Below are positions 11,473 through 35,041 of a stretch of DNA of 48,922 bases, in pieces (position 1 is the stretch's first letter; every line of letters starts with the position of its first letter). The stretch covers positions 1 to 48,922 of IMG/VR virus record IMGVR_UViG_3300025030_000159. One strand, given 5' to 3'. Made by a program: the position numbers and the translations under genes. Source of the DNA: a virus. Under the pieces are notes generated by a model. It saw only the letters and a program-made list of their open reading frames with translations. It was not told where the DNA came from and ran no database searches.

Positions 11473-11599
11473 AGTTGACTGCCCGGCAAGAACTAAAGGA
11501 GTTAATGCTTGTCTTGCGATTAAAGAATGTCCTGCAATTCTTGCATGGAGGGCTAGGTTAGGGGAAGAGGTTGAAGAAAAGGAAGGAAAGAAAGAATGA
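11453..11599 (+). CDS. Small four-Cys protein, 48 aa
   Basis: Four cysteines in the first 27 residues (PCFEVDCP, ACLAIKECP) suggest a metal or disulfide knot, followed by a charged helix. AAGGAGAAGAAG precedes the ATG. The TGA overlaps the polymerase ATG as ATGA, so its translation is coupled to the polymerase. Confidence 0.6.
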   Translation: MQDPCFEVDCPARTKGVNACLAIKECPAILAWRARLGEEVEEKEGKKE

Positions 11600-14292
11600 G
11601 CTTTATAGAAATAGAAGAAACATCTCTTCCAACTTTGGACCTCGATGTAAGACAAGAAGGGGCGAGAGTTCTTCTTGTCTTAGATTATCCAAGTGGGGAT
11701 GATGTACGGCAAGGGAAAGCTTGTGCCGGGGCATATGGGACTATTCTAGCCTCGTGTCTTGCCTCAGCGGGAATAGCTCTCTCTACCTGTTCCATTATCT
11801 TTATCTTCCCCTTTCCGAATGAGAACTATTGTGTTAATAAATTCTTTACAGAAAAGACAGGGCTTACAAGTGAAGGGTTGGAGTTTTTAAACCCCCTTAG
11901 AGAAAGGATTTTAGATTTAGACCCAACAGTAATAGTCCCTATAGGGGAAATGGCCCTTCAGTTAATAACAGGAAAAAGAGGAATAGAGAAATACCGAGGG
12001 TCTATTTTAGAAAGCTCTCTAGTCCTAGGACTAAAAGCCATCCCTACTGTGCATCCAAGGGATTCTTTTAAACGTTTCCTCCTTCGTTATCACATCGCTA
12101 GTGATTGTAAGAAAATAGCAAGGGAGAGTCTTAGGAGGGAGATAGTTCTTCCAGTTAGAACTCTTTTAATAAATCCCCTTTTTTCAGAAGTAATTTCTTA
12201 CTTAAAGGATATAAAAGAAAACAAAAAAGAAATCGCGATAGATATTGAATGCCCTGTCCCGAAACCCGTTAAGGATAAAACCACAGGAGTTACTAAAATC
12301 TATGGAACCAAAGGCGTCACTTGTATTTCATTTGCAACTGCTCCGGATTACTGCATGTCTATCCCGTTTAACAACTATGTCTGGACGGAAACTCAGGAGA
12401 TTGAGATTTGGGATATTATTAGCTATATTCTCTTTTCAGAAGAGATTAGAAAGAAGTACCAAAATGGAGCATGTTTTGATATTATTTATCAGTTTATGGT
12501 ACATTCCCTCATTACTCGTGGGGCTATTAGTGATACGCTTATTAAGACTAATATCTTATATCCTGAATTCCCTAAGTCACTCGCTTTTCTTACCTCTACT
12601 AGGACGGATGAACCGTATTACAAGGACGATGGGAAGGAAGTAAATGTAGATGGTACGAGGGATTGGAATCAGTATTATATTTACAATGCCAAAGACTCAG
12701 CGGTGGATTTTGAGATAGATATAGATCTGGATAAAGAGTTGGAAAAGAGTGGGAACTTACCTATGTGGGAATATTCACAGAGACTTATAGAACCTCTTTT
12801 CTATCTACAAGTTAGAGGGATAAAGATAAATGAGAAGAAGCTTAAGGAACATAAAGAAGAGGCAAAGGTATATCTTAAATCTCTCCAAGAGAAACTCAAC
12901 ACACTTGTGGGGGAGCCCATTAATGTCTCTTCTCCAAAACAAATCATGGAGTTTTTCTATACAAAAAAGAATTATCCTTCCATTACTAAAAGCATTAAGG
13001 ATAAGGATGGGAATAGAAAGGAAGTAGTAACGGTGGATAATAAAGCCATGACAAAGATAGCGAGGTTGTATGACTCAGAAGAAGCGAGGCTCGTTAAAAA
13101 AATCCGAGGATGCTCGAAACTTATTGGAACTTATCTTGAACTACCATTTGATGAAGATTCTAGGATGCGAGGAGCATTTAAACAAAGTACTAAATTCGGA
13201 AGACTTGCGTCCTCTAAGACTCCATTTAAAACAGGAATGAATCAGCAGAATCTACCAAAGGTTTTTATGGAGTTCTTAGAAGCCGATGATGGGTTTATGT
13301 GCTTTGAGTTAGACAAGGCCCAAGCGGAATGGGTGGATTCGGCGTATTATTTCAACGAACCAAATATGATCCGAGCGGTGGAAGCAGGAGAGGATGTTCA
13401 TGTCTCTACCGCTATGCTCATGTTTGGAGCGCCAAAGGAGTTAATAGAAAGAGAGAATGAAATCCTTGGCCCACTTACTGAACCGACAGAGATAGAAGCA
13501 CTTAGGAGGGAGAAATGTCCGGAGGTCTTTCTCTATCCCATTCTCCCAAATATGTCCATGCGACAGGCGGGGAAGAAGTGTAACCACTCTTTTAACTACG
13601 GCCTAAGCTCTACCGGATTCTCTATGAACTATGACATGCCAACTGCTCAAGGGAAGATCTGTTATGATCTTTATCACAAAAAAGCCTATCCCGGGATTTT
13701 AAAAGCCCATGAGCGAATTCGAAACCAAATTGTTCTAAATCGAACTTTAATAAATGGCTTCGGCTGGAAGAGGAGGTTTTTAGGAAGACTAGATGATAAT
13801 ACCTTTAGACAAGCATATTCCTACCACGGACAATCCACTGTCGGGAGACTTTTAAATGAAGGGATTATTTCTATTTACTATCAACAGTTTGATCCGGATC
13901 TTGCTCCTTTCATGCGTCCTGTTGATTTATTTAGCCAAGTACATGATAGTGTTAAGGGGCAATATCCAGATACGGAGCTTAGGAATTTCGCCAAGGCCCT
14001 TAAACAAATGCAACTTGATCTTGACATTCCTCTTAAAGCTAATGGAAGGACGTATGTGATTAAGACAGATGCAAAGGTTGGGTATAATTTAAAGAAAATG
14101 GAAACCGTTCCTCTATATGGAACGGAAGAAGAGATATACTTAAAACTCCTAGAGATAAAAAAGAAACTAAAACCCCTTAAAGAAACTAAACCGGAAATAG
14201 AAAACGCAATCCAAGAAGCTCTCGAACAGGAAGAGGAAGATCTACTACTCGAAAAATTACAAAAAGAGGAGAGTGAGAATTATGCTTCTTAG
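11596..14292 (+). CDS. UDG-like/3'-5' exonuclease/PolA DNA polymerase
   Basis: This 898-aa replicative polymerase has three parts. Residues 20-180 resemble the family 4/5 uracil-DNA glycosylase fold (DDVRQGKACAGAYG, IVPIGEMALQLITGKRG, IPTVHP). Residues 190-375 are a DnaQ-like proofreading exonuclease with Asp216/Glu218, Asp295 and Tyr363-xxx-Asp367. Residues 385-830 are a family A polymerase: motif A Asp573 (FELDKAQAEW), motif B Arg656, Lys660, Tyr668 (RQAGKKCNHSFNYG) and motif C His783-Asp784-Ser785. Spacing puts His664 at the position of E. coli Pol I Phe762, a residue that affects nucleotide discrimination. Motif C reads HDS instead of HDE. The UDG-like part lacks the usual GEAPG motif, so glycosylase activity is doubtful and it may be structural. 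The 5' nuclease domain of cellular Pol I is absent. Confidence 0.88.
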   Translation: MSFIEIEETSLPTLDLDVRQEGARVLLVLDYPSGDDVRQGKACAGAYGTILASCLASAGIALSTCSIIFIFPFPNENYCVNKFFTEKTGLTSEGLEFLNPLRERILDLDPTVIVPIGEMALQLITGKRGIEKYRGSILESSLVLGLKAIPTVHPRDSFKRFLLRYHIASDCKKIARESLRREIVLPVRTLLINPLFSEVISYLKDIKENKKEIAIDIECPVPKPVKDKTTGVTKIYGTKGVTCISFATAPDYCMSIPFNNYVWTETQEIEIWDIISYILFSEEIRKKYQNGACFDIIYQFMVHSLITRGAISDTLIKTNILYPEFPKSLAFLTSTRTDEPYYKDDGKEVNVDGTRDWNQYYIYNAKDSAVDFEIDIDLDKELEKSGNLPMWEYSQRLIEPLFYLQVRGIKINEKKLKEHKEEAKVYLKSLQEKLNTLVGEPINVSSPKQIMEFFYTKKNYPSITKSIKDKDGNRKEVVTVDNKAMTKIARLYDSEEARLVKKIRGCSKLIGTYLELPFDEDSRMRGAFKQSTKFGRLASSKTPFKTGMNQQNLPKVFMEFLEADDGFMCFELDKAQAEWVDSAYYFNEPNMIRAVEAGEDVHVSTAMLMFGAPKELIERENEILGPLTEPTEIEALRREKCPEVFLYPILPNMSMRQAGKKCNHSFNYGLSSTGFSMNYDMPTAQGKICYDLYHKKAYPGILKAHERIRNQIVLNRTLINGFGWKRRFLGRLDDNTFRQAYSYHGQSTVGRLLNEGIISIYYQQFDPDLAPFMRPVDLFSQVHDSVKGQYPDTELRNFAKALKQMQLDLDIPLKANGRTYVIKTDAKVGYNLKKMETVPLYGTEEEIYLKLLEIKKKLKPLKETKPEIENAIQEALEQEEEDLLLEKLQKEESENYAS

Positions 14293-16323: not shown

Positions 16324-16899
16324 GTGAGAGAAAGAGAAGACGAGTTGGTTTATTTAACAAGGCCGAAAAAAGTTTGTAATAGCACTAGTTCAGACTGTAA
16401 CTGTAGAGTTTGTAAGGAAGATAAGAATTTGGGAGAGCTTCCTTTTGGACAGGGGCCGGGACATACGGTTCCAGTTGTTGGAAAACTCCCGGGAATGTTT
16501 ATAACAGATTCAGACTTTTTAGAAAGTTATCAAGATATAAATATCCCAAATAGAAAAATAACTCAAGAAAATATAACTAAAAAAGACGAAGTAGAGAAAT
16601 ATAAAAAAATAACCCATAAGGAGAAGATGGATGCAATGCAGGAGATTTTCAATAAATGTCTCGCAATTGCAGATGCTAAGGGAAGAGATTATAGTGGTAC
16701 CCAAGATGCAATGTCTAACTTCCATGACTTTGGATGGAAAGGAATCATCGTTCGATTGGGGGATAAATGGAATAGGATTAAAAACCTCACAAATGCTGGT
16801 AATAACTTTGTTAAAGATGAATCCCTTGAAGATACTCTTTTGGATAATATTAACTACAGTGTACTCGCACTTATTGAAAAAAGGAATCTTATAAAATGA
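16324..16899 (+). CDS. Nmad1/DUF1599-domain protein, 191 aa
   Basis: The start is a GTG at 16324, 8-9 nt downstream of AGGAGGGG. The N-terminal 40 residues hold a Cys cluster (SDCNCRVC). The C-terminal 85 residues match my recollection of nucleotide-modification-associated domain 1 (DUF1599): a CLAIADAKGRDY start, FHDFGWKGIIVRLGDKWNR and a closing DNINYSVLALI helix. That domain is found near phage base-modification genes and in nucleotide-handling proteins. No thymidylate synthase-like or glycosyltransferase partner is visible, so its substrate is unknown. Confidence 0.6.
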   Translation: MREREDELVYLTRPKKVCNSTSSDCNCRVCKEDKNLGELPFGQGPGHTVPVVGKLPGMFITDSDFLESYQDINIPNRKITQENITKKDEVEKYKKITHKEKMDAMQEIFNKCLAIADAKGRDYSGTQDAMSNFHDFGWKGIIVRLGDKWNRIKNLTNAGNNFVKDESLEDTLLDNINYSVLALIEKRNLIK

Positions 16900-17523: not shown

Positions 17524-20500
17524 TTACTCCTCGCCTTCGTTGTAGTTATAAATCGTAGGTCCGATTATTGGTATATCTTTTATCATTGTCCTTTCAAAAG
17601 CACTCCAGTCATCATCTATTAATCCCTGTCTAAGGGCAAAGGCTTTAGTCCCTACATCTCCTATTACCGGACCCCCAAGGGCCTCTGCAAGACCAGAGGA
17701 ACTTCTCATTGCGTTATGAACTGTATCTGCCCATAGGCCAAATCCCCCACCGCTGGTTAAATACCTACTTACCTGTTCCAAGGTAGTCTCATCCCCTCGG
17801 ACTTTTGCAGTTAGAAGATCTATCCCTTCAGCAGTTAATCCACCTAAAACAGTCATACTAGCTAGAAGTTTCCCGGCCATTATTGGATCAGTTTTTAAAG
17901 TCCTACTTATAAGCTTCGCCTGTTGCATTCCGAAAGTTTTAAAAAGAGTTAGGATTCTAATCCATGGGTTTTCACTACTAACCCAACGAGGAAGTTGCAT
18001 GGAGTCATTTATAAACTGTGTTTCTTTTACAAAGTTATAACTTGCAGTTCTTCGATCTAGTTCTGTTAGTTCTGTTTTACTTAGAAGTTCCACCGGATCT
18101 AGGCCTAGTCGTTTAAGTCTCATCGAAGAAGATCTAAAAGCCCTGCTATCCGGTTTGGCATTTTTTAACTCTCTAAAAAGATCCACCGCATACTCTCTCC
18201 CTGTCGTAGCGGCAAAGAGCCTGTTAAAAATCTCACTCTGTTTAAATCCACTAACGGTTAAAAATCCATCTGCGGTATCTCTAGCGATCTTTGCCACTTT
18301 CATAAACCCGATACTGACTTCTTGGCCTCTTTCGAAACGAGCAAAGTCATTTGCATATGAATGAAGCATTGCTCCGGATCTCTCTGCCAGATCCATAGCG
18401 GTTTTCGGGTCAGAGAAGATTTTTCCTAAAGCCTTTAAAGAACTCTTGGTATAAGAAGTCCCGATGGTATTTGCGCTTTGCCCTAGGTTCCTAACTCCTG
18501 CTCGGCCCATTTTAGTCAGAACTGCTAGAGAAGTAGCGGTATCTACAAAGGCCCTTCCAATTACATCATTCCCATAATTCCCACCCATCATTCTTTTATT
18601 TATATCTATCGCATATTTATAAACATAATCCCCACTTTCTTTTTTAATATTCCCTAAGAGTTCAAGGACTCCCTTCCCCTGTTGTCCATAAGCTTTTATA
18701 ACTTCTATCCTTTTTGTCGCCCCTTTGAAGTAATTGTCAAAGACTATGTTTATATCCTTTTCATATCCATCTATATTAAACTCTCTTGCGTATTCCATAT
18801 TCCCATACTTCGGAGAGTTCATCCTACGGCTAAGGATCTTATCTAAGAGAACCTCTGCTTGAGCGGGAGTTTCTGCATACCCTTTCTTCACCATCTGCTT
18901 AATCGCAGCGTCATGCTTCCTTCCCGGGTTTACTAACTCCTCTGGGTTATAAAACCTAGGCCAGTGCGGAGCTTCGGGATCATGGGTATATGGAAGTCTC
19001 TCTCCTTTTAAATTTACTATCTTAACCCCATTAACCTCCATATCTTCTGAGAGTTCGTTGAACTTTTCCCGGATGAATTTAGCTGCATCCTTTACCCTCG
19101 GAGCATCCGGGAGATTTACTATCTCACTAGTAGGGATAGTTTCTACTATCTCTTGAACTCTTACCTTCTCTCCTTCTGTTAGCTTAGATAAAAAGTTTTT
19201 CTTCTCCGCTGCCATCTCTGCAAATCTTAGATCCGAGTTAATCCGAATAGAAGAAATAGTCTCTGCAAGTTTCTTCGCACTAGGACCATGAGATCTTAAA
19301 TAAGCCTCCCCATCTGCAAAGGCTCTGTTACTTAGTTCCTTTATCCCAAAAAGGCCATTAGCCGAAAGGGAGTTTTCTATAAACGCTCTGTCTACGTCTT
19401 TCTTTATTTTCCTATTTCTCGGCCCGGCTTTTTGAAACCCCTTAAACTCCTCTCCATTTTTTAGTTTATAAAGAAACTGAAGTCCATCTATTATAGTCGC
19501 CCTTTCTTCAAAGGACATGAATTTTATTTCTTCTATTCCAGTTAGGTATTTGTTTATAGTTTTTAATTCCTCTGGAGTTACTTTAAGGGCATTCTTAATC
19601 ATCCCGATTGTTCTGGTCTGACTCCTAGCAACTAGGGAGTCTTTACTAGTCAAGTCCTTCCCGATAAAGATAAACTCTTTTATCTGCTCTTCTGTTAAAT
19701 CCGTCTTAGTCCTAAGCCAATCATCAAGAGAGAGTTTCTCCTCTTTAGCAAAGGTCTCTGCTTTTTTATATTCCTCCGCAAGTCTATCGTTTGCTTTCTT
19801 TCTTTCTTCTAAGATCTTCGCTTGAGTTTCAAAGAGAGAAAAACTCCCCCTCTCTTCTTTTAACTTCTTAGTAAAAGTAGCTAAGAAGCTATTCTCTTTC
19901 GGGGATAAATTCTCAATTGCTACCTTTGCCTCTCCAATAATAGTCCCGAGTTTTGTATCAATTGCATTTTTAATAACTCTTTCTTTAACTCCCTCTGGGA
20001 CTATCTCCTTTTTTGCTAAGGTACTATCCTTTAATCCCACACTTTGGAAGAGGGCATCTAAAACCTCTGGGCTAAAATTCATCCCTCGCATTTTTTCAAA
20101 AGTATTTACCAACTCCTCTTGACTCATAGGTTTTCTATAACTTCTCTTATCCGTAGTAAGTGCATCATAAACATCCGCTGCACTTACTATCTGAGCTTCG
20201 ATAGGAATCTCTTTATCCTTAAGCCCATTCGGATACCCTTTCCCATCAAATCTCTCATGGTGATTTTCGATTATATTCATAACCGTAGGGCTTAGTTTAT
20301 CCTTATACCCCTCTGCAAAACCTCCAAGAGGATGAGTTTTTACTATTTCAAACTCTTCCGGAGTTAGCTTCTCGGGTTTATTTAAAATCTTCTTATCTAT
20401 ATTTATCTTCCCGAGATCATGGAGCCAGCTTCCGTACATAATATCATGCTGGATATTTTCCGGAGTTCCTAAGACTTTCGCCATCTTAACTGCAATAGTC

Positions 20501-21888
20501 GCTACATGCTCTCCATGTGCTTTTAAATCCGGATCATATTCTTTTATCTTCTGTGCTAGTTCTTGGATAGTAAGAGGTCTTTCTTCTCCTTTTATTAATG
20601 CTTCTAGGGAAGAGAAGTGTTCATCTAAAAAGCCATTCTCTACTTTAATATGTCTATTTCCTAACTCTGCAAGATCCGCTCTATCATCAAAGACAGCTAG
20701 GAGTTTAGATCCTCTAGGAGTTAGGTGTTCTTTTTCTAAGGCAAGATATTCCGGTCCTCTAGTCCCACCATAATCCCCACCGAGATCCGGAGTAACCGCA
20801 GCTACTCTTTGCTTAACTCCCGCAGTTCTAAGCTCCTCTTGTATATCCCCTATGTCTTTTAAAAGAAGAGAAGTCTGTCTATGAGTAGATCCAACAGCCA
20901 GATCCACATCATCCGGAGTTCTTGCATTCCACTTCTTCACATACTCTGCATCAAATCCCGTAGTGGGACTGAAGACTTTATCTATATCTATCCCTATTAC
21001 TTTAGGTTTTATATCTTCTAGAATAATCCCACCCGTTTCAGTTACGATTTGCCTCGGCCCTGTGGTTATTTCTTCCTTTATCCCTTTCTTACTCTCTATC
21101 AAATCATTAATAACCCCATCAGGGTTAAAGGGTTTTGTTTTTATCTCCTCTGCTTTTAACCCTTTAGATGGAACGGGAAGTTCATCCGTAGCAGGGATTA
21201 CTTTATCCACCACCCCTTTTGCTACTTTTTCTTCTATTCCATTTTTTGTTAAATTATGAAATAACTTTGCTGCAATTACAAATGGAGCCATCTCCCCAAC
21301 TGTCTGAGTCGCGGCATAGGCATTTGGAAATTCCTTCTTAACTCTCTCTCCAGTTTTATCATCTATATAATCAATCGCTATCGGGACACTTTTAAGAACA
21401 GTTTCTATCTTCCCCATTGTTTCTTCCCCGGCTTTTGTCCGAGGCATATAAGTAATCGCATCCATGTTATTTCTTATCCTCTCCCCAAGAGAGGACCAAG
21501 TAGGGGCTACTCCGTTGAACATCCAGTTGGAGAGTTCATTACTCCCACTTACGGCAACATTTGCTAGAGCCATTGCGGGATGGAAGTTAGCAAAACCTGT
21601 TGCCTGTTGGAGGATATTCTCCCCCATTCCTATATCCTTCTTTCCTTGTTCTACTATCTTCTCTCCTATTTTCTTCCCTATATTCTTAATTGGAGCAATG
21701 AAATCTGAAAGAGTAGCTTCGTCTACATCTACTTCTTTCTTCTTAACTGGAGCTTTTCCCCCTTCCATCTGTTGAAACATTTCTAAGGAAGAGAGAGAAG
21801 AAGAGGAAGTGGAAATAGGAGGAGCCGAAGCCCCTCCCTTTTTTCCTTTCTCCTCCTCCATTTGCTGAAACATTTCTAAACTATTCAT
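17524..21888 (-). CDS. 1454-aa polyvalent ejection protein, HD-GYP and HAD
   Basis: This is the last and largest late gene, next to other probable ejection proteins, so it is likely injected with the DNA. The N-terminus holds SLEMFQQME twice (residues 3-11 and 34-42). Residues 297-432 resemble a HAD phosphatase fold (Asp301-x-Asp303; VFDDRADL at 399-406). Residues 440-617 form an HD-GYP domain: His458, His490-Asp491, His519, HHERFDGKGYP at 543-553 and AADVYDALTTD at 570-580, so the metal ligands and GYP signature appear intact. HD-GYP proteins hydrolyse cyclic di-GMP. The remaining 830 residues are helical and resemble the long C-termini of phage polyvalent proteins, with a hydrophobic stretch near residues 1310-1330. 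No transglycosylase motif was found. ATG 21888 follows AAAAGGAC. Confidence 0.8.
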   Translation of the reverse strand: MNSLEMFQQMEEEKGKKGGASAPPISTSSSSLSSLEMFQQMEGGKAPVKKKEVDVDEATLSDFIAPIKNIGKKIGEKIVEQGKKDIGMGENILQQATGFANFHPAMALANVAVSGSNELSNWMFNGVAPTWSSLGERIRNNMDAITYMPRTKAGEETMGKIETVLKSVPIAIDYIDDKTGERVKKEFPNAYAATQTVGEMAPFVIAAKLFHNLTKNGIEEKVAKGVVDKVIPATDELPVPSKGLKAEEIKTKPFNPDGVINDLIESKKGIKEEITTGPRQIVTETGGIILEDIKPKVIGIDIDKVFSPTTGFDAEYVKKWNARTPDDVDLAVGSTHRQTSLLLKDIGDIQEELRTAGVKQRVAAVTPDLGGDYGGTRGPEYLALEKEHLTPRGSKLLAVFDDRADLAELGNRHIKVENGFLDEHFSSLEALIKGEERPLTIQELAQKIKEYDPDLKAHGEHVATIAVKMAKVLGTPENIQHDIMYGSWLHDLGKINIDKKILNKPEKLTPEEFEIVKTHPLGGFAEGYKDKLSPTVMNIIENHHERFDGKGYPNGLKDKEIPIEAQIVSAADVYDALTTDKRSYRKPMSQEELVNTFEKMRGMNFSPEVLDALFQSVGLKDSTLAKKEIVPEGVKERVIKNAIDTKLGTIIGEAKVAIENLSPKENSFLATFTKKLKEERGSFSLFETQAKILEERKKANDRLAEEYKKAETFAKEEKLSLDDWLRTKTDLTEEQIKEFIFIGKDLTSKDSLVARSQTRTIGMIKNALKVTPEELKTINKYLTGIEEIKFMSFEERATIIDGLQFLYKLKNGEEFKGFQKAGPRNRKIKKDVDRAFIENSLSANGLFGIKELSNRAFADGEAYLRSHGPSAKKLAETISSIRINSDLRFAEMAAEKKNFLSKLTEGEKVRVQEIVETIPTSEIVNLPDAPRVKDAAKFIREKFNELSEDMEVNGVKIVNLKGERLPYTHDPEAPHWPRFYNPEELVNPGRKHDAAIKQMVKKGYAETPAQAEVLLDKILSRRMNSPKYGNMEYAREFNIDGYEKDINIVFDNYFKGATKRIEVIKAYGQQGKGVLELLGNIKKESGDYVYKYAIDINKRMMGGNYGNDVIGRAFVDTATSLAVLTKMGRAGVRNLGQSANTIGTSYTKSSLKALGKIFSDPKTAMDLAERSGAMLHSYANDFARFERGQEVSIGFMKVAKIARDTADGFLTVSGFKQSEIFNRLFAATTGREYAVDLFRELKNAKPDSRAFRSSSMRLKRLGLDPVELLSKTELTELDRRTASYNFVKETQFINDSMQLPRWVSSENPWIRILTLFKTFGMQQAKLISRTLKTDPIMAGKLLASMTVLGGLTAEGIDLLTAKVRGDETTLEQVSRYLTSGGGFGLWADTVHNAMRSSSGLAEALGGPVIGDVGTKAFALRQGLIDDDWSAFERTMIKDIPIIGPTIYNYNEGEE

Positions 21889-21891
21889 CTT

Positions 21892-22959
21892 TTATTGTCC
21901 TTTTATAAGATGTGGTGCGGGATGTTTTATCAAAGGAGAAGGACTTACCTCCACCAACTTCCCTTCCTTATCCCTCTTAACTCCATACCAGTTATGATCC
22001 GGACCAAGTTCTAACTTCTCATATCCACCAGCGAGTTTTTTATAATCATTAGTGTTATACGCATCTCCCGGTTTAGCCAGAAGTGCAGCCTGTTGCATTG
22101 TGTAAGTAAAATAATCCCTCTTTGCTCCATCTTTCTTTCCAAACTTCTTCATCATATTACTCTGAGCAGCTTCTTTTAATTTCCCAAACTTCTCATAAGT
22201 AGTAGTTACTTCTACGTTTCGATTATTCTCTCTGGTTATATCTTTTAACTCCTTCGCTTCTCTAGCTCTGAGGCGAAGTTCTTCCAGCCGCATGGAGTTA
22301 TCTTCTTGGTTTCTACTATTCCTTCCCCTCTCTGCTTCTTGTTCTAGTGCAAGCTGTGCCGCTCTATAACTCTGATCCGCTGCAAGGTTTGCCCTTCTAA
22401 TCCCCATCTCTTGAGCTTTCCACTTATTCTCACTAGCAAGGGATTCCGAATGCCACTTATCCTGCATTCCTAAACTTTGTCTTTGTCTTTCAAACTCTGC
22501 ACTGATTGTTTCTCTATGTCTTCTTTCTTGCGATTCGAGGGTTTCTTTTTGGAGCTTACTCTCATGTTCAAAGCCTCTTTCCTGCAATCTTTCCGAATGT
22601 TCGAAACCTTTCTCTTGTCTCTCCGCATTCTTCCCCTCTATAAACATATCCCTAGCTGCTTGCTGTTGGGCTCTCCTATTCTCCGTAATCCCGTAAAGCT
22701 GATCTCTTACATTTACAGCCCCACTTACTTGTTTTAAATTCTCACTCATTATTTTAGTTCTATTATCTATCATCTCATCGAACTGAGCCGGGGTAAGTCC
22801 AGCAAGCTCCACTGGACTATTAAACCCCAAAGATCCACTTAAACTCCCTCCAGATCCAAGGGCATTCTGGATCTGGATAGAGTCTATTCCTTTTATATTC
22901 TCACTTATTTTATTCAAGTTCTTTAAATAATCCTGCCCTATGGCATCTGAAACTGGCAT
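21892..22959 (-). CDS. Probable ejection protein, coiled coil, 355 aa
   Basis: Residues 110-250 form a long charged coiled coil with repeated QERGFEHE/SERLQE-like heptads. The N-terminus is Gly/Ser-rich and the C-terminus ends in a Tyr/Lys/Pro-rich segment. Its place, 3 nt upstream of the giant polyvalent protein and after Gly-rich membrane-prone proteins, matches internal virion protein clusters of podoviruses. No sequence family is recognised. Confidence 0.6.
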   Translation of the reverse strand: MPVSDAIGQDYLKNLNKISENIKGIDSIQIQNALGSGGSLSGSLGFNSPVELAGLTPAQFDEMIDNRTKIMSENLKQVSGAVNVRDQLYGITENRRAQQQAARDMFIEGKNAERQEKGFEHSERLQERGFEHESKLQKETLESQERRHRETISAEFERQRQSLGMQDKWHSESLASENKWKAQEMGIRRANLAADQSYRAAQLALEQEAERGRNSRNQEDNSMRLEELRLRAREAKELKDITRENNRNVEVTTTYEKFGKLKEAAQSNMMKKFGKKDGAKRDYFTYTMQQAALLAKPGDAYNTNDYKKLAGGYEKLELGPDHNWYGVKRDKEGKLVEVSPSPLIKHPAPHLIKGQ

Positions 22960-23427: not shown

Positions 23428-24675
23428 TTATCCTAAAAGCCCAAGAAGTCCACCAGCTGCTCCACCTACTGCGGCACCTATTGGATTACCCCCACTAAGC
23501 ATATACCCCATACTCGCACCACCTATCGCCCCACCTAAAATCCCACCAGCAGTTCTTCTCCCTCCACCATCATCTGTAGAAACTGCACTACCACTTATAG
23601 ATCCAAGAAAGTTCCCACCATATTGGAAACATTTCAAATCCCAAAGAGCATCTTTTGCTCTCATTTCTATGTTTATGTTATCTAGTTCTGTTCTTAGCCC
23701 CGCATACATTTTTGCAAAATCCAACGCAGTAGTGGCTATATCTCTTTTCGCTAGAATAATCTTAGTCGTATAATCCATCCCGAGAGAGCTAAGTTCTCTT
23801 CTATAAAGAAGATCCTTCGTAGCCAAATCCGCACTGAGGGTTATTAGTTCTTTATGCGTTGCGACTTTAGCGGTTACTAAATCCGCTGCTACTTTTACAA
23901 GTCCCTCTCTAGTGGCTATTTTTAATTTCGCCAGTTCCATAACTATATCTTGATTCTTCATTACTAGTTGGATGTTTTCTTTAAACCCTTGAAGCTGATA
24001 AGTCGCGGTGTCTTTATTAACCTCTCGGAGTTTATGCCCTCGGATTATTGCCTCTCCGATAGCAAAGGCAGAACTCATCACCGCATTGGCATCTCGCATT
24101 CCACTTCTATATCTCGGGAGAGTTACTTGATCTAAGTCACTTTCTAAAACCGCACTCTCTGCAACTATTAAAGAGTCTAACAGATTAGTAATCGCAGCAA
24201 GGAAAGTACTAACACCATTATTCTGACTCGTCCTATATGCGGTTAAAATAGTATCAAAGTCTAAATTCGCAAGAAGACCATTTAAATACGTATTTATATT
24301 TGTATCAAAAACCATTCCGGAGTTATAAGTAGTATTAAAAGAACCCAGAGAAGTAGAAAAACTCGGAATTCCTGCTACGTAAGCGTTATAGAGAGTAACA
24401 AAATCCATCCCGGCATAAGTGTTTAAATACGAAAAAGGCGCCGTGAAGTTCGTTATCACCTGTCCACTACCAAGAAGAGTCTCATTTGCCGTTACGCCTA
24501 CAAATGCCGCATAAGGGCTAACTCCTGTCATAGCAGCACTTAATGCCTGAGAGAGAGTTATGCTCGCTCCTTGTGTTCCAAGAAATGCCCCATGAAAAGT
24601 CTTCATATAATCCGGAAAATCTACTGCACCAGAACTTCCACCACCACCTGAACTACCGCCTCCTCCAAATCCCAT
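23428..24675 (-). CDS. Internal virion protein with glycine-zipper tail
   Basis: This 415-aa protein begins with a Gly/Ser tract (residues 3-16), continues as a Ser/Thr-rich helical region, then a long amphipathic helix (residues 220-345). It ends in glycine-zipper repeats (GGAIGGASMGYMLSGG, GAAVGGAAGGLLG) that could insert in membranes. Such tails fit ejected pore-forming proteins. It lies between the acetyltransferase-like protein and two further ejection candidates. Confidence 0.6.
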   Translation of the reverse strand: MGFGGGGSSGGGGSSGAVDFPDYMKTFHGAFLGTQGASITLSQALSAAMTGVSPYAAFVGVTANETLLGSGQVITNFTAPFSYLNTYAGMDFVTLYNAYVAGIPSFSTSLGSFNTTYNSGMVFDTNINTYLNGLLANLDFDTILTAYRTSQNNGVSTFLAAITNLLDSLIVAESAVLESDLDQVTLPRYRSGMRDANAVMSSAFAIGEAIIRGHKLREVNKDTATYQLQGFKENIQLVMKNQDIVMELAKLKIATREGLVKVAADLVTAKVATHKELITLSADLATKDLLYRRELSSLGMDYTTKIILAKRDIATTALDFAKMYAGLRTELDNINIEMRAKDALWDLKCFQYGGNFLGSISGSAVSTDDGGGRRTAGGILGGAIGGASMGYMLSGGNPIGAAVGGAAGGLLGLLG

Positions 24676-30569: not shown

Positions 30570-31847
30570 TTAGGGAGAGAGAGTACCATTAAGCCCAATC
30601 CCATCCAGCCAACCATGTGCTTTTTCGAAATGAACTTCCAGACCAGCCTCAGTCAGGAACTCCGATTTTTCCCCATCAAGATCATTCGCTTGCCGATTCG
30701 GGAGATATTTCGTATCATCCACAAAACGATAAACCAAATGCGGGGGATCAAGAATTCCCATCGAATACCGCAACGGAGCAAGGAGAGTAAAGAGCGGATG
30801 AAGTTTCAGATGAAGAGTCCCGAATACGGTATTAAGAGTTACTACCTTAATCCCATATGCCTGAATTCCCGGGGTAATGGTCATATCCCCATCTGCTTCT
30901 ACCATCTGCTGAATGCCCATAAGAGCGCCAGAACCACAGAAAGCGATCTTCTCAGTATTCCCATATCTGAAAAGCTGCTCCAGATAAGCATCCAAGAACG
31001 CCTTCCCACCAGCGGCCCAAGTTGCGCTAGTAGAAGTGGAAAAATCACTTACGTTAGTAGTAAGATAATTCCTAATCCCTCTAGTAGTCCTCTCCGGTTT
31101 GTTATTTGCACCAGTCCGGACAGAAAGAGCAGAGAACCAATATGCTTTTTCTTGTTCGATGGAGTGCATTTCCAGAGCTTGTCTTTTCGCTTCCTTAACC
31201 TGATCTCCAGTTCTCAATCTCGTCTTCATGGCCGTTCTGGTTTGATCCAGAGAGTTTCTGAAGATCTGAGTATAGGACGAAAGCTCATTCGGATCATAGA
31301 TCAAACTAGCAGGAGAAGTCCCACCTTCCGGATTTACAGAACCAATTACCAAAAGAGAAGCATTAGTGGAACCAGCAGCAGTATGAATCGCCCCGCCTTT
31401 GGTAGAACTTCCATCTGCTTCAAGGAGGATACAAGTAATATAAGAAGAAGCCCCATTAATAACCGGGGCAACAGTTACTTTCGCAGTAAGTCTCGTAGAA
31501 GGGAGGTTGTTAATTACCAACATCACTTGATGGCTTACGTTGAACTTAGCTGCATTAGCGGCAGACATTTTTACATAAAAAGTATCCCCAACTACAGCAG
31601 CGGCATATGCGTCAGAAAGGTTCGTTCCACCAAATACACCAGTAACCGCACCAATCTGATCCGGAAGTTCCTGTTGGAACCAGTGAAAAATCGGATCATC
31701 CGTTTTCTCGCTTTTCAGCTTTGCCAGAAGAGCCGTAAGCGGTGCGTGACCATTGGGATAAAGCCAAAGAACCATCTCCCTCCAGTTCTCAGGTCTTTGA
31801 CCAGTAACAGTAAAATCTCCACTTCCTCTCATACCAAGAAAAGGCAT
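30570..31847 (-). CDS. Major capsid protein, SU10/DUF5309-like
   Basis: This 425-aa protein has the family opening GDFTVTGQRPENWREMVLWL, followed by PNGHAPLTALLAKLKSEK, as in DUF5309/SU10-type HK97-fold major capsid proteins. It lies after a scaffold gene and before a head-fibre-like gene. Codons are shifted toward CTG, CCG, ATT and AAC relative to neighbours, consistent with very high expression. A 439-codon open frame on the opposite strand is a by-product of this codon usage. Confidence 0.8.
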   Translation of the reverse strand: MPFLGMRGSGDFTVTGQRPENWREMVLWLYPNGHAPLTALLAKLKSEKTDDPIFHWFQQELPDQIGAVTGVFGGTNLSDAYAAAVVGDTFYVKMSAANAAKFNVSHQVMLVINNLPSTRLTAKVTVAPVINGASSYITCILLEADGSSTKGGAIHTAAGSTNASLLVIGSVNPEGGTSPASLIYDPNELSSYTQIFRNSLDQTRTAMKTRLRTGDQVKEAKRQALEMHSIEQEKAYWFSALSVRTGANNKPERTTRGIRNYLTTNVSDFSTSTSATWAAGGKAFLDAYLEQLFRYGNTEKIAFCGSGALMGIQQMVEADGDMTITPGIQAYGIKVVTLNTVFGTLHLKLHPLFTLLAPLRYSMGILDPPHLVYRFVDDTKYLPNRQANDLDGEKSEFLTEAGLEVHFEKAHGWLDGIGLNGTLSP

Positions 31848-31866
31848 TTCTTTAACTCCTTCTTAT

Positions 31867-32781
31867 TTAAAAATCACGGTCCATTAAATCCGCTGCATTC
31901 ATGTCGAATATCTCTTTCTTCCCACCTTTACTAATCGGGGTGCTCGTTCCAGATTTAACTCCAGCAAAAGCGGGTTTTGTTTCCTTAGATTGGGCCGGGA
32001 GTTCCTGTTGTTTAGACATAGAAACTGGCTCTTTCAATCCTAGCCTTTTTCGGCAAACGCTTGCTGTTTCCATAAAGATCTCTGAATACGGTTTATTCCG
32101 ATCCTTTTCTTCTTCCTCTCTCAAAACCATCTGGACATATTTACTATGCTCAATAAGATCCGGATTAGCCTCGTAGAAAGAGCTTACTGCTTTATGAACT
32201 ATTACCTCTCTATTAACTGCGATATTTACTATCTGAGGAATTACCTCTGCAAGTAGATCTGCCATTTCCGTTCGGCTGTTATAAATAGCTTCATTGATAA
32301 GTTCCGGTTTATCTATTACTTGATCTAGTTGTTCTTTAGACAGAAACTCTTTCTTATCATAAAGGGAGTTAAAAATCTCATTCACTTCTCTTTTCGGTTT
32401 CTTTTCCTTCTCTACCTCTTTCTCTTCCGCCTTCTTCTCTACCGGAGGAAAAACCTGCTCTTTCCCATCCCTAGCAAGAAGGCCACTTAGTCTATTTAAT
32501 TCCTCTCGAAGAGTAGCAAGTTGAAGATCTTTTTCGTCTACTTCTACTTTTTTCTCCTCTACTTTCTCTTCTTCTTTTTTCTCCGGAGGAGTTTCTATTT
32601 CTTTCTTTTCTTCTTTTTTATCTTCTTCTTCCACTTTCTCCAGAGGAATTTCTTCCTTCTTCTCTACCACTTCCGAATCTTCAAAAAAGGAGATCATATC
32701 AGTAATCTCTTTCTTATCAATCGGACCCATTTCAATCATCTCATTTAATTCTTTTTCCATCTCAGGATCATCAATAGGCAT
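31867..32781 (-). CDS. Capsid scaffold protein, 304 aa
   Basis: The highly acidic N-terminal half (residues 25-90) is Lys/Glu-rich coiled coil, followed by a helix-rich body and a flexible C-terminus. Composition and location between portal and capsid genes are typical of scaffolding proteins. AAAAAGGAGAG precedes the ATG. No protease domain is visible. Confidence 0.65.
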   Translation of the reverse strand: MPIDDPEMEKELNEMIEMGPIDKKEITDMISFFEDSEVVEKKEEIPLEKVEEEDKKEEKKEIETPPEKKEEEKVEEKKVEVDEKDLQLATLREELNRLSGLLARDGKEQVFPPVEKKAEEKEVEKEKKPKREVNEIFNSLYDKKEFLSKEQLDQVIDKPELINEAIYNSRTEMADLLAEVIPQIVNIAVNREVIVHKAVSSFYEANPDLIEHSKYVQMVLREEEEKDRNKPYSEIFMETASVCRKRLGLKEPVSMSKQQELPAQSKETKPAFAGVKSGTSTPISKGGKKEIFDMNAADLMDRDF

Positions 32782-32787
32782 AAAAAT

Positions 32788-33093
32788 TTACTCTCCTTTT
32801 TCTCTCTCCCCTTCAAGGGAAGCGATTTGAATATCCCGGATGATAAAAACCGGGAGAGTTTTTAAATATTCCAACTCACTTATTCTACTACGAATATCAC
32901 TATCTGTCCACTTTTTTTCTGGATCTCCGTACCTTAAAAGTTCCATAAGATATTTATCCCTCTCTTCTATCTCAAAGAGGAGAGCCCCCCAGAATGGACC
33001 TTTTGTAAACTCTTCCCACTCTCTGAGACTGATAGAAAAAGGATCTACTCTATTCCCCTCCTCCTCGCATTTGCATGAACTGCTGCATATCAA
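32788..33093 (-). CDS. Hypothetical 101-aa protein overlapping portal
   Basis: The frame overlaps the 3' end of the portal gene by 44 nt. No ATG lies at a suitable place, and I favour TTG at 33093, 6 nt after AAGGAA, but the start is uncertain. The C-terminal 80 residues are acidic and helical (REWEEFTKGPFW, DIRSRISELEYLKTLPVF), a type of small protein often encoded next to portal genes. Confidence 0.5.
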   Translation of the reverse strand: MICSSSCKCEEEGNRVDPFSISLREWEEFTKGPFWGALLFEIEERDKYLMELLRYGDPEKKWTDSDIRSRISELEYLKTLPVFIIRDIQIASLEGEREKGE

Positions 33094-35041
33094 TAAGATT
33101 TCCTTTTTGGCTCTCCTCGGCAACTTCTGGATCAAGCATTTGAGTATTTTGTACATCTCCACCTCTTTTTAGAAACTCGAAAACATTAGTCGCACCATTC
33201 ATCCTCGCCGCATGGCCAAAGATTCTAGTTATATCAAACTGCTGTTGAAGGACAGGATCTTGAGAAACCATCTTCATACTCTCCAGCCAGAATTGAACCT
33301 CCGTCTGAGAAGCACTTTTCTGTGTCCCATCTTTGAAAATAACATCAAAATCTGCCAGAAGATCAAAGGGACTTACTTGGACTTTCTGATTCAACATAGT
33401 CCCAAATTCCTGCGCTAATTGCTCTGGCCAATCCCCTACAGCTTTTACAAAAGTTTCTTGACTCATTAATTGCTGAGTATGAGAAGCATGGAAATAGGCA
33501 AGATCTTGGAGATACTGAACAGAGACTATCTTTGCCATTCTATCTAGACGACTAATTGCCATGTTCATAGTTCCATTAAACTCAGAAGCACTAACCCTCT
33601 CTCCTCTATCCTGAACTATCCCCTGAGTCGAATCACTTGCTCCAGTTGCTCTACTCATCATTCCCATTATCTGCTCTGCATCTACCATGTTTTGTCTAGT
33701 AATATCCACTATCTGAAGCTGCTTAACCGCATTATCCACTCCCCTTCCCCAAGCACTTCTTCTAAGTCTTATTAACTTCCCGGGTTCAGGGTTTTTTAAA
33801 TCTTCCATATTTACCAAAGAAGGATCTACCACTAACATATCATTCATAGCCTTTCGGACATTTGCTATATGGCTATTGAACATAAAATCCAGAGTCGTCT
33901 GTAATCCCCCAACCAGTTCCATCCTAGCAAGTGGAGTAATCGAATATCCATCGAAGTCCGGAGCACTTACTGCGATTGGGTACATATTATGATTAAGCCC
34001 TAGAGGCATGGCTTTTGTGACAAACTGCTCATTCGCCATTTCAAAGAGCCATTTCTCCGGATATTCCCCTCTTTCATTCCCTTCCAAAGTCCCGGGAAGG
34101 CCCCAATCTTTCGGGATAATCTCACAATACATAGGGATAACAGTCAAATACCTAGTAGAATTAGAAGTATCTCTGTCTTCTTTAGAAAGAATCCTCCTAC
34201 TTGGATCTATTGAGTACTTAGACGCCCGACTATTTTGCGTCTTCGGGTCTATATACCTAACATTCACCCTCTCCCCGGTCTGGTCACTAGCAAGGAGTCT
34301 ATTCATAGAGATAAAATCAATCCATCCGATAAATTCCATCGCTTGTAGATTATGAATAGAAGTATTTGGATCTGGAAGAAGTCTATATGGGTCTATATTT
34401 ATACACTCATTCCCTTCAAAAAGAAGAGCCTTTACATTTTCTTTAGTAGAAATAGAAGGAAGTTGCATTCCAGTAGTAGGACTCCATTGACTTACTTGAC
34501 TAATCCTCGGCTTCATCCCCCAATGCTGTTTCCAGTTAAGAGTAGTCGCCCCAACACCATAGGAAAAACAGTCTCTAAGAGAGGAATAAATATCAAGGAT
34601 GGATTTAAATCTCCGAGTTTGTTGATTTACTACAAGTTCTAGGAGTTTCGCCGGGATAGTATCTTCCGGTCCACAGCCTTCATATTGAAAAATATCCCCA
34701 CTTAAAAACGCCCTCATCATATAAGCAAGGATTGTCTCCAAAGTCGCATAAGAATAAGGAACAACTATCGAAACCGGCTTTCTTCCATCCTTATTCCTAA
34801 CTAACCTCTCTGCTTCACTTAGAGGGATATAAACCTTAAGAGTCTTATCTATCTCATTCCAAGCTGCATGTCTCTTAGACATGACGGAAAAACTATCATC
34901 TGTAAATCTAAGGAGCTTTTCTAATATCTTACTATGCAATTCACTCCCGGGCTTTAGATCCAAGTTAAAAGGATATTTATAATCCAAATCCCTTAGAACA
35001 ATCGGCCCGGTTGAGGTACTTCCCATAATCACACTTGGCAC
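33050..35041 (-). CDS. Portal protein, podovirus type, 663 aa
   Basis: The long helical N-terminal part (SKILEKLLRFTDDSFSVMS), the conserved-looking PYSYATLETILAYMMRAF and FSYGVGATTLNW segments, and the C-terminal Gln/Met-rich tail fit podovirus-type portal proteins. The start is GTG 35041, about 8 nt after AGGAGGAG; an ATG at 35026 is too far from that site. It precedes the scaffold and capsid genes in the usual order. Confidence 0.75.
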   Translation of the reverse strand: MPSVIMGSTSTGPIVLRDLDYKYPFNLDLKPGSELHSKILEKLLRFTDDSFSVMSKRHAAWNEIDKTLKVYIPLSEAERLVRNKDGRKPVSIVVPYSYATLETILAYMMRAFLSGDIFQYEGCGPEDTIPAKLLELVVNQQTRRFKSILDIYSSLRDCFSYGVGATTLNWKQHWGMKPRISQVSQWSPTTGMQLPSISTKENVKALLFEGNECINIDPYRLLPDPNTSIHNLQAMEFIGWIDFISMNRLLASDQTGERVNVRYIDPKTQNSRASKYSIDPSRRILSKEDRDTSNSTRYLTVIPMYCEIIPKDWGLPGTLEGNERGEYPEKWLFEMANEQFVTKAMPLGLNHNMYPIAVSAPDFDGYSITPLARMELVGGLQTTLDFMFNSHIANVRKAMNDMLVVDPSLVNMEDLKNPEPGKLIRLRRSAWGRGVDNAVKQLQIVDITRQNMVDAEQIMGMMSRATGASDSTQGIVQDRGERVSASEFNGTMNMAISRLDRMAKIVSVQYLQDLAYFHASHTQQLMSQETFVKAVGDWPEQLAQEFGTMLNQKVQVSPFDLLADFDVIFKDGTQKSASQTEVQFWLESMKMVSQDPVLQQQFDITRIFGHAARMNGATNVFEFLKRGGDVQNTQMLDPEVAEESQKGNLIDMQQFMQMRGGGE

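What the first reader, a model, noticed from the sequence alone, without database searches (positions are those of the whole stretch)
20035..20995. HD-GYP cyclic-di-GMP phosphodiesterase-like domain in an injected virion protein
Residues 440-617 of the 1454-aa protein keep the HD-GYP ligands (HD at 490-491, HHERFDGKGYP at 543-553, AADVYDALTTD at 570-580). The gene sits at the end of the ejection protein cluster. If the protein is injected, it could lower host cyclic di-GMP or cleave other cyclic nucleotides (for example anti-phage signals such as cGAMP) from the first minute of infection. Polyvalent proteins are known to carry varied enzymatic domains; an HD-GYP domain in one is, to my knowledge, uncommon.
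Basis: partly seen in the sequence, partly recalled or inferred. Interest (0 to 1): 0.75.

Follow-up and report, generated by a model that had tools for sequence, protein, structure and literature searches.

The report
HD-GYP enzyme inside phage ejection-like protein
A bacterial virus carries, inside a large protein that is probably injected into its host with the DNA, what looks like a complete working enzyme for destroying cyclic-nucleotide messenger molecules; such enzymes are known in phages as separate proteins, but I found no earlier report of one built into an injected virion-type protein.

Summary
The 1454-aa protein (17524-21888, minus strand) has a full HD-GYP domain at residues 440-617 (DNA 20038-20571): Pfam HD_5, 98.7 bits against a cut-off of 27.2. 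AlphaFold2 models it at pLDDT over 90, and the best solved match is PmGH, the tri-iron c-di-GMP phosphodiesterase. All eight PmGH metal-ligand positions are filled, and all 16 key residues checked are identical in a sister phage, where the domain is 64% identical (N-terminus 27%, C-terminal scaffold 67%). The C-terminus is related to ejection-type virion proteins. The gene ends the portal-capsid-virion gene run. The sister's orthologue adds an ART-PolyVal domain next to the HD-GYP, the mark of a 'polyvalent' protein. Of 106 HD-GYP reading frames found in IMG/VR, only those of the sister lie in a protein over 1000 aa. Most likely this is a virion-delivered cyclic-dinucleotide phosphodiesterase. 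Delivery, catalysis, substrate and purpose (counter-defence, c-di-GMP reprogramming or superinfection exclusion) are inferred, not shown. HD-GYPs as free phage proteins and GGDEF domains in polyvalent proteins were already described, so this is a new variant of a known kind.

The parts
17524..21888 (-). 1454-aa gene: ejection-type (gp16-position) polyvalent-like protein
   Evidence: orthologue in the sister phage; AGGA before the ATG
20038..20571 (-). HD-GYP domain, residues 440-617
   Evidence: Pfam HD_5 98.7 bits; AF2 pLDDT>90; VIA Z 23.5 to 4mcw
20416..20421 (-). HD motif H490-D491 (metal ligands)
   Evidence: aligned with PmGH H221/D222
20230..20262 (-). HHERFDGKGYP, residues 543-553 (metal ligands H543, H544 and the GYP loop)
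   Evidence: invariant across 23 HD-GYPs apart from the R/F/K positions
20149..20181 (-). AADVYDALTTD, residues 570-580 (metal ligand D572, structural D575)
20599..21003 (-). Upstream domain, residues 296-430, with HAD/PNK-phosphatase-like motifs (D301xD303, S-T-H-R 334-337, D401-D402-R403)
   Evidence: motif residues kept in the sister; no family or PDB match; fold not resolved
17527..19401 (-). C-terminal virion/ejection scaffold, residues 830-1454
   Evidence: phrog_684 virion structural protein E 4.9e-6 at residues 1310-1412; 67% identical in the sister; weak similarity to epsilon15 gp17 and a T7-type ejection protein
21892..22959 (-). 355-aa charged, helical-looking protein just upstream; possible gp15-position protein
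   Evidence: no family match; 29% identical in the sister
23428..24675 (-). 415-aa protein with glycine-rich C-terminus; possible gp14-position (pore) protein
   Evidence: sequence; Desulfofustis-phage orthologue has a weak Gly-zipper match
30570..31847 (-). Major head protein (gene context)
   Evidence: phrog_1328 E 1.7e-30
33050..35041 (-). Portal protein, SU10-type (gene context)
   Evidence: PF23899 67.7 bits
38919..40520 (-). Terminase large subunit (gene context; marker used to find relatives)
   Evidence: phrog_38 E 2.5e-60; 80% identical in the sister

Best explanation
The gene encodes the large last-position ejection-type protein of a ~49-kb tailed phage, into which a catalytically competent HD-GYP phosphodiesterase has been built. 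Proposed course: the protein is packaged, enters the host with the DNA, and its HD-GYP domain, lying between an N-terminal and a C-terminal hydrophobic segment, comes to face the cytoplasm as the middle part of T7 gp16 does. There it binds two or three Fe/Mn-type ions and linearises 3',5'-cyclic dinucleotides (c-di-GMP and/or 3'3'-cGAMP-like signals), blunting nucleotide signalling early in infection. Newly made, not yet packaged copies would do the same late in infection. Shown here: domain identity, an intact site, purifying selection, virion-gene context and polyvalent kinship. Inferred: packaging, injection, topology, catalysis, substrate and benefit.
For: HD_5 98.7 bits. PDB hits: PmGH 1.6e-26 and the V. 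cholerae 3'3'-cGAMP phosphodiesterase V-cGAP3 2.6e-19. AF2 pLDDT>90 over the domain, Z 23.5 to 4mcw. All eight PmGH ligand positions (D454, H458, H490, D491, H519, H543, H544, D572) plus D452, K494 and D575 are present, positions whose replacement impairs PmGH (PMC4159591; mapping), and are identical in the sister. dN is 0.31 in the HD-GYP against 0.89 in the N-terminus and 0.26 in the C-terminus. The C-terminus hits phrog_684 and weakly phrog_342, an internal virion protein family. The gene lies after terminase, portal and capsid genes in the same direction. The sister has ART-PolyVal directly after the HD-GYP. The syntenic Desulfofustis-phage protein has a sub-threshold LPD38 match, a domain reported only in phage polyvalent proteins (PMC5512222). 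Published analysis predicts that phage HD-GYPs counter cyclic-nucleotide immunity (PMC7824862).
Against: No proteomics or enzyme data exist. The C-terminal relationship to ejection proteins is modest (E 5e-6; hhalign probability 42-68%), and the Desulfofustis-phage protein in the same position shows no detectable sequence similarity. The N-terminal hydrophobic segment is weak (mean hydropathy 0.99). If the topology resembled gp16-N the domain would be periplasmic. T7 packs only about four gp16 copies and HD-GYPs are often slow (own knowledge), so injected copies alone may turn over little signal. The host and its signalling systems are unknown.
Confidence: 0.55

Rival explanations
1. The target is c-di-GMP, and the benefit is a change of host physiology or surface (motility, biofilm, receptor glycan), including superinfection exclusion by shutting off a c-di-GMP-dependent receptor.
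For: c-di-GMP is the commonest HD-GYP substrate (PMC8177086); the PmGH base-contact positions R314/K317 correspond to R582/R585. In E. coli a phosphodiesterase protects cells from phage N4 because its receptor glycan needs c-di-GMP (PMC8669472).
Against: The same arginines occur in V-cGAP3, which cleaves 3'3'-cGAMP, so they do not discriminate. Host and receptor are unknown.
Confidence: 0.4
2. The target is an immune cyclic nucleotide (CBASS-type 3'3'-cGAMP or related), i.e. a counter-defence enzyme; late, unpackaged copies may matter most.
For: Polyvalent proteins are argued to carry such activities (PMC5512222); jumbo-phage HD-GYPs have been predicted to do this (PMC7824862). The sister's neighbouring ART domain is a conflict-type domain. 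The best PDB hit of the two-phage profile is V-cGAP3.
Against: Sequence does not reveal the substrate; no experimental anti-CBASS HD-GYP was seen among the listed papers.
Confidence: 0.3
3. The protein is a non-injected structural or late non-virion protein, and the HD-GYP acts in the infected cell only after late expression.
For: Packaging rests on modest homology and position; the Desulfofustis-phage protein in the same place is unrecognisable in sequence.
Against: The best profile matches are virion structural and internal virion proteins; the gene lies in the virion gene run and ART-PolyVal is present in the sister.
Confidence: 0.2
4. The domain is a catalytically dead cyclic-dinucleotide receptor or a purely structural remnant, like DvhD.
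For: DvhD shows that HD-GYP domains can bind without cleaving (PMC13090378).
Against: DvhD lost its HD and HH ligands; here every ligand is present and invariant in both phages, with low dN.
Confidence: 0.06

Closest known systems
HD-GYP phosphodiesterases (PmGH, 4mcw; PF13487)
   Same: Fold, all eight metal-ligand positions, GYP loop, catalytic D183/K225 equivalents
   Different: No REC, GAF or PAS sensor; the domain is embedded in a 1454-aa phage protein; E185 is replaced by Asp, and the E/D-T-G triplet reads D-L-K
V-cGAP3 3'3'-cGAMP phosphodiesterase, 5z7c
   Same: Sequence relationship (E 2.6e-19; best hit with the two-phage profile)
   Different: V-cGAP3 shows two HD-GYP-type stretches in the alignment and is a bacterial signalling enzyme
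Phage polyvalent proteins (Iyer et al. 2017, PMC5512222)
   Same: Large protein in the virion gene run; the sister orthologue carries ART-PolyVal; GGDEF cyclic-nucleotide domains already known in this class
   Different: 'HD-GYP' does not occur in that paper's main text; the window protein has only one securely identified enzyme domain
Jumbo-phage HD-GYP proteins (PMC7824862)
   Same: Same enzyme class in phages, predicted counter-nucleotide role
   Different: Given there as phage-encoded enzymes, not as part of an ejection-type protein; this genome is ~49 kb
T7 gp16 / epsilon15 gp17 ejection-type proteins
   Same: C-terminal similarity, position last in the virion cluster, size
   Different: T7 gp16 carries a transglycosylase, the smaller ones no known enzyme; detected similarity is restricted to about 100-120 C-terminal residues

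Membership tests
HD-GYP domain family (HD_5/PF13487) | Profile match above the curated cut-off | tested here: met
   98.7 bits vs 27.2; sister 109.5 bits
HD-GYP domain family (HD_5/PF13487) | H...HD...H...HH...D metal-ligand set | tested here: met
   H458, H490-D491, H519, H543-H544, D572
HD-GYP domain family (HD_5/PF13487) | HHExxxGxGYP loop | tested here: met
   HHERFDGKGYP 543-553 in both phages
HD-GYP domain family (HD_5/PF13487) | HD-GYP fold | tested here: met
   AF2 pLDDT>90; Z 23.5, 181 residues, rmsd 2.4 to 4mcw
HD-GYP domain family (HD_5/PF13487) | Hydrolysis of c-di-GMP or another cyclic dinucleotide | not testable with these tools
   needs purified protein
Trinuclear (PmGH) HD-GYP subgroup | Eighth ligand E/D at the PmGH E185 position | tested here: met
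   D454 in both phages
Trinuclear (PmGH) HD-GYP subgroup | E/D-T-G signature triplet | tested here: not met
   D-L-K; PmGH itself reads E-T-Q; not filed in this subgroup, nuclearity left open
Phage polyvalent proteins | Several disparate enzymatic domains in one polypeptide | tested here: inconclusive
   Sister: HD-GYP plus ART-PolyVal. Window protein: HD-GYP plus an unproven HAD-like domain
Phage polyvalent proteins | Gene among virion/late genes | tested here: met
   same-strand run with terminase, portal, head protein
Phage polyvalent proteins | Packaged in the virion and delivered | not testable with these tools
   needs virion proteomics
gp16-type ejection proteins | Profile similarity to internal virion/ejection proteins | tested here: inconclusive
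   phrog_684 E 4.9e-6; phrog_342 E 0.0098; hhalign probability 42-68%
gp16-type ejection proteins | N- and C-terminal membrane-inserting regions | tested here: inconclusive
   hydropathy peaks 192-210 (0.99) and 1335-1363 (up to 1.40), similar places in the sister

The most novel reading that the evidence does not exclude
A virion-delivered cyclic-dinucleotide phosphodiesterase: a phage that strips the host of a cyclic-nucleotide signal from the moment of DNA entry, before any phage gene is expressed, using an enzyme built into its genome-ejection protein. The unassigned upstream HAD-like domain might further dephosphorylate the product.
Probability: 0.35. Interest if true: 0.75.

Novelty: new variant of a known kind. 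Interest (0 to 1): 0.52.

Why it matters
Known phage counters to nucleotide signalling are mostly made after infection starts. An enzyme carried in by the particle would act in the first minutes, when the phage is most exposed, and would link c-di-GMP or CBASS-type signalling to the act of genome entry. It adds signal destruction by HD-GYP to the polyvalent-protein repertoire, which already includes signal synthesis (GGDEF, RelA/SpoT). It can be tested with one purified domain and one virion proteome.

Tried and rejected
Close relatives: the full protein, two-sequence alignments and a C-terminal stretch were scanned for; only the sister records are true relatives. Loci L051-L055 were chance matches to TAKVRGDE or to another reading frame. 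Thirty 'phages' records were hit by tblastn: the nine human-fecal ones inspected encode ordinary bacterial-type HD-GYP proteins, several with REC or GGDEF partners, on unverified scaffolds and were not counted as phage enzymes; Microcystis phage MaAM05 has a separate 493-codon HD-GYP-type protein. HAD-like domain: no Pfam, PHROG, PDB-sequence or tblastn support, two AF2 models unconfident, and its fold search gave nothing better than E 0.1, so the HAD reading rests on motifs alone. PADLOC Cas3 hits reflect the shared HD superfamily. Recognition residues cannot tell c-di-GMP from cGAMP. The Desulfofustis-phage protein in the same position was tested for an HD domain and has no Pfam match to one. 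No tRNA or Rfam match in the window. Papers on the cGAMP-selective HD-GYP PmxA and on the V-cGAPs were not held.
Full report
Observation. The ORF at 17524-21888 on the minus strand encodes 1454 aa. Pfam HD_5 matches residues 447-609 with 98.7 bits against a curated cut-off of 27.2, and a search of solved structures returns only HD-GYP proteins: PmGH (E 1.6e-26), V-cGAP3 (2.6e-19), PA4781, DvhD and Bd1817. The stated interval 20035-20995 also holds a second, upstream domain; the HD-GYP itself is 20038-20571.

Is it a working site? In PmGH the metal ligands are E185, H189, H221, D222, H250, H276, H277 and D305, and D183, K225 and D308 are also needed (PMC4159591). From the alignment these correspond to D454, H458, H490, D491, H519, H543, H544, D572 and to D452, K494 and D575. 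Every one is filled, with Asp for Glu at the eighth ligand, a replacement that paper describes as occurring in that subgroup. All 16 residues checked, GYP and the two base-contact arginines included, are identical in the sister phage (hypergeometric p 5e-4 given 64% identity over the domain). The E/D-T-G triplet of the trinuclear subgroup is not kept, so whether the centre has two or three metals is open. AlphaFold2 gives pLDDT above 90 over the domain; the best solved match is 4mcw, Z 23.5, 181 residues, rmsd 2.4. DvhD, an HD-GYP that binds but cannot cleave, has lost its HD and HH ligands (PMC13090378); this protein has not.

Relatives. The window is an IMG/VR virus record. The terminase led to a sister, IMGVR_UViG_3300025011_000071 (terminase 80% identical), and a more distant GenBank record, Desulfofustis phage LS06-2018-MD01 (terminase 35%). 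The sister's orthologue has 1711 aa. Identity by region: N-terminus 27%, HAD-like region 41%, HD-GYP 64%, C-terminal scaffold 67%. dN follows the same order: 0.89, 0.55, 0.31, 0.26 (dS is saturated, so ratios are only rough). The HD-GYP is thus held nearly as tightly as the structural part, while its flanks drift. Directly after the HD-GYP the sister carries an ART-PolyVal domain (39.6 bits as an isolated domain, cut-off 31.2) that the window protein lacks; such gain or loss of whole enzyme domains is what one expects of polyvalent proteins. The Desulfofustis-phage protein in the same place has no HD-GYP match and a sub-threshold LPD38 match, and is not recognisably similar in sequence, so the HD-GYP looks like a lineage-specific module.

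Is it an injected virion protein? The C-terminus matches phrog_684 'virion structural protein' (best E 4.9e-6) in both phages, and weakly phrog_342 'internal virion protein'. Pairwise profile comparison with epsilon15 gp17 and a T7-type ejection protein gives probabilities of 42% and 68%. The gene is the last of a same-strand run holding terminase, endolysin, portal and head protein, after a protein with a glycine-rich C-terminus and a charged helical-looking one, an order that recalls T7 14-15-16 (PMC8954989; inference). Hydrophobic segments lie at 192-210 and 1335-1363, so the HD-GYP falls between them, where T7 gp16 has its cytoplasmic part. This is analogy, with a weak N-terminal segment; a periplasmic position cannot be ruled out.

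How unusual is it? Exact-motif scans of IMG/VR for HHExFDGxGYP, HHExYDGxGYP and HHExWDGxGYP gave 15, 10 and 87 stretches. Of 106 reading frames examined, most are 190-450 codons, and only the two records of the sister exceed 1000. The window's own record is left out of such scans, variant motifs are missed, and seven stretches were not listed. Papers describe phage HD-GYPs as predicted counter-nucleotide enzymes (PMC7824862) and GGDEF and RelA/SpoT domains in polyvalent proteins (PMC5512222); 'HD-GYP' does not occur in the latter's main text, and no listed paper described an HD-GYP in a virion protein.

Mechanism. The best reading is a delivered cyclic-dinucleotide phosphodiesterase. Whether it serves counter-defence, a c-di-GMP change, or exclusion of later phages (as phosphodiesterase expression protects E. 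coli from N4, PMC8669472) cannot be decided from sequence. A caution about numbers: T7 holds about four gp16 copies, and HD-GYPs tend to be slow (own knowledge), so a few injected copies could lower a small c-di-GMP pool over minutes, but hardly a large immune burst. Late unpackaged copies could. The upstream domain keeps D301xD303, an S-S/T-H-R stretch and D401-D402-R403 in both phages, which resembles HAD phosphatases of the polynucleotide-kinase type (own knowledge), but every database and fold test was empty or unconfident.

Verdict. Observation confirmed; enzyme class secure; delivery plausible; substrate unknown. New variant of a known kind, of moderate interest.

Noticed in passing
L008:8641-9309 (sister phage IMGVR_UViG_3300025011_000071): ART-PolyVal ADP-ribosyltransferase domain directly after the HD-GYP in the sister's 1711-aa orthologue, absent from the window protein.
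   Followed up: partly
window 20599-21003 (-): Domain with HAD/polynucleotide-kinase-phosphatase-like motifs directly before the HD-GYP; no database match.
   Followed up: partly
window 11596-14292 (+): DNA polymerase A whose N-terminus has a sub-threshold uracil-DNA glycosylase match (PF03167, 21.9 bits), suggesting a UDG-like/polymerase fusion.
   Followed up: no
window 16324-16899 (+): Protein with a 'nucleotide modification associated domain 1' (DUF1599) match, next to the convergent end of the HD-GYP gene.
   Followed up: no
window 30615-31934 (+): 439-aa open frame antisense to the major head protein, also open in the sister (356 aa) and shorter in the Desulfofustis phage; probably a codon-usage effect.
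   Followed up: no
L039-L047 (GenBank MT835xxx-MT839xxx 'Bacteriophage sp.' records): Unverified human-fecal 'phage' scaffolds carry ordinary bacterial-type HD-GYP signalling proteins, so they look like bacterial DNA and inflate counts of phage HD-GYPs.
   Followed up: partly
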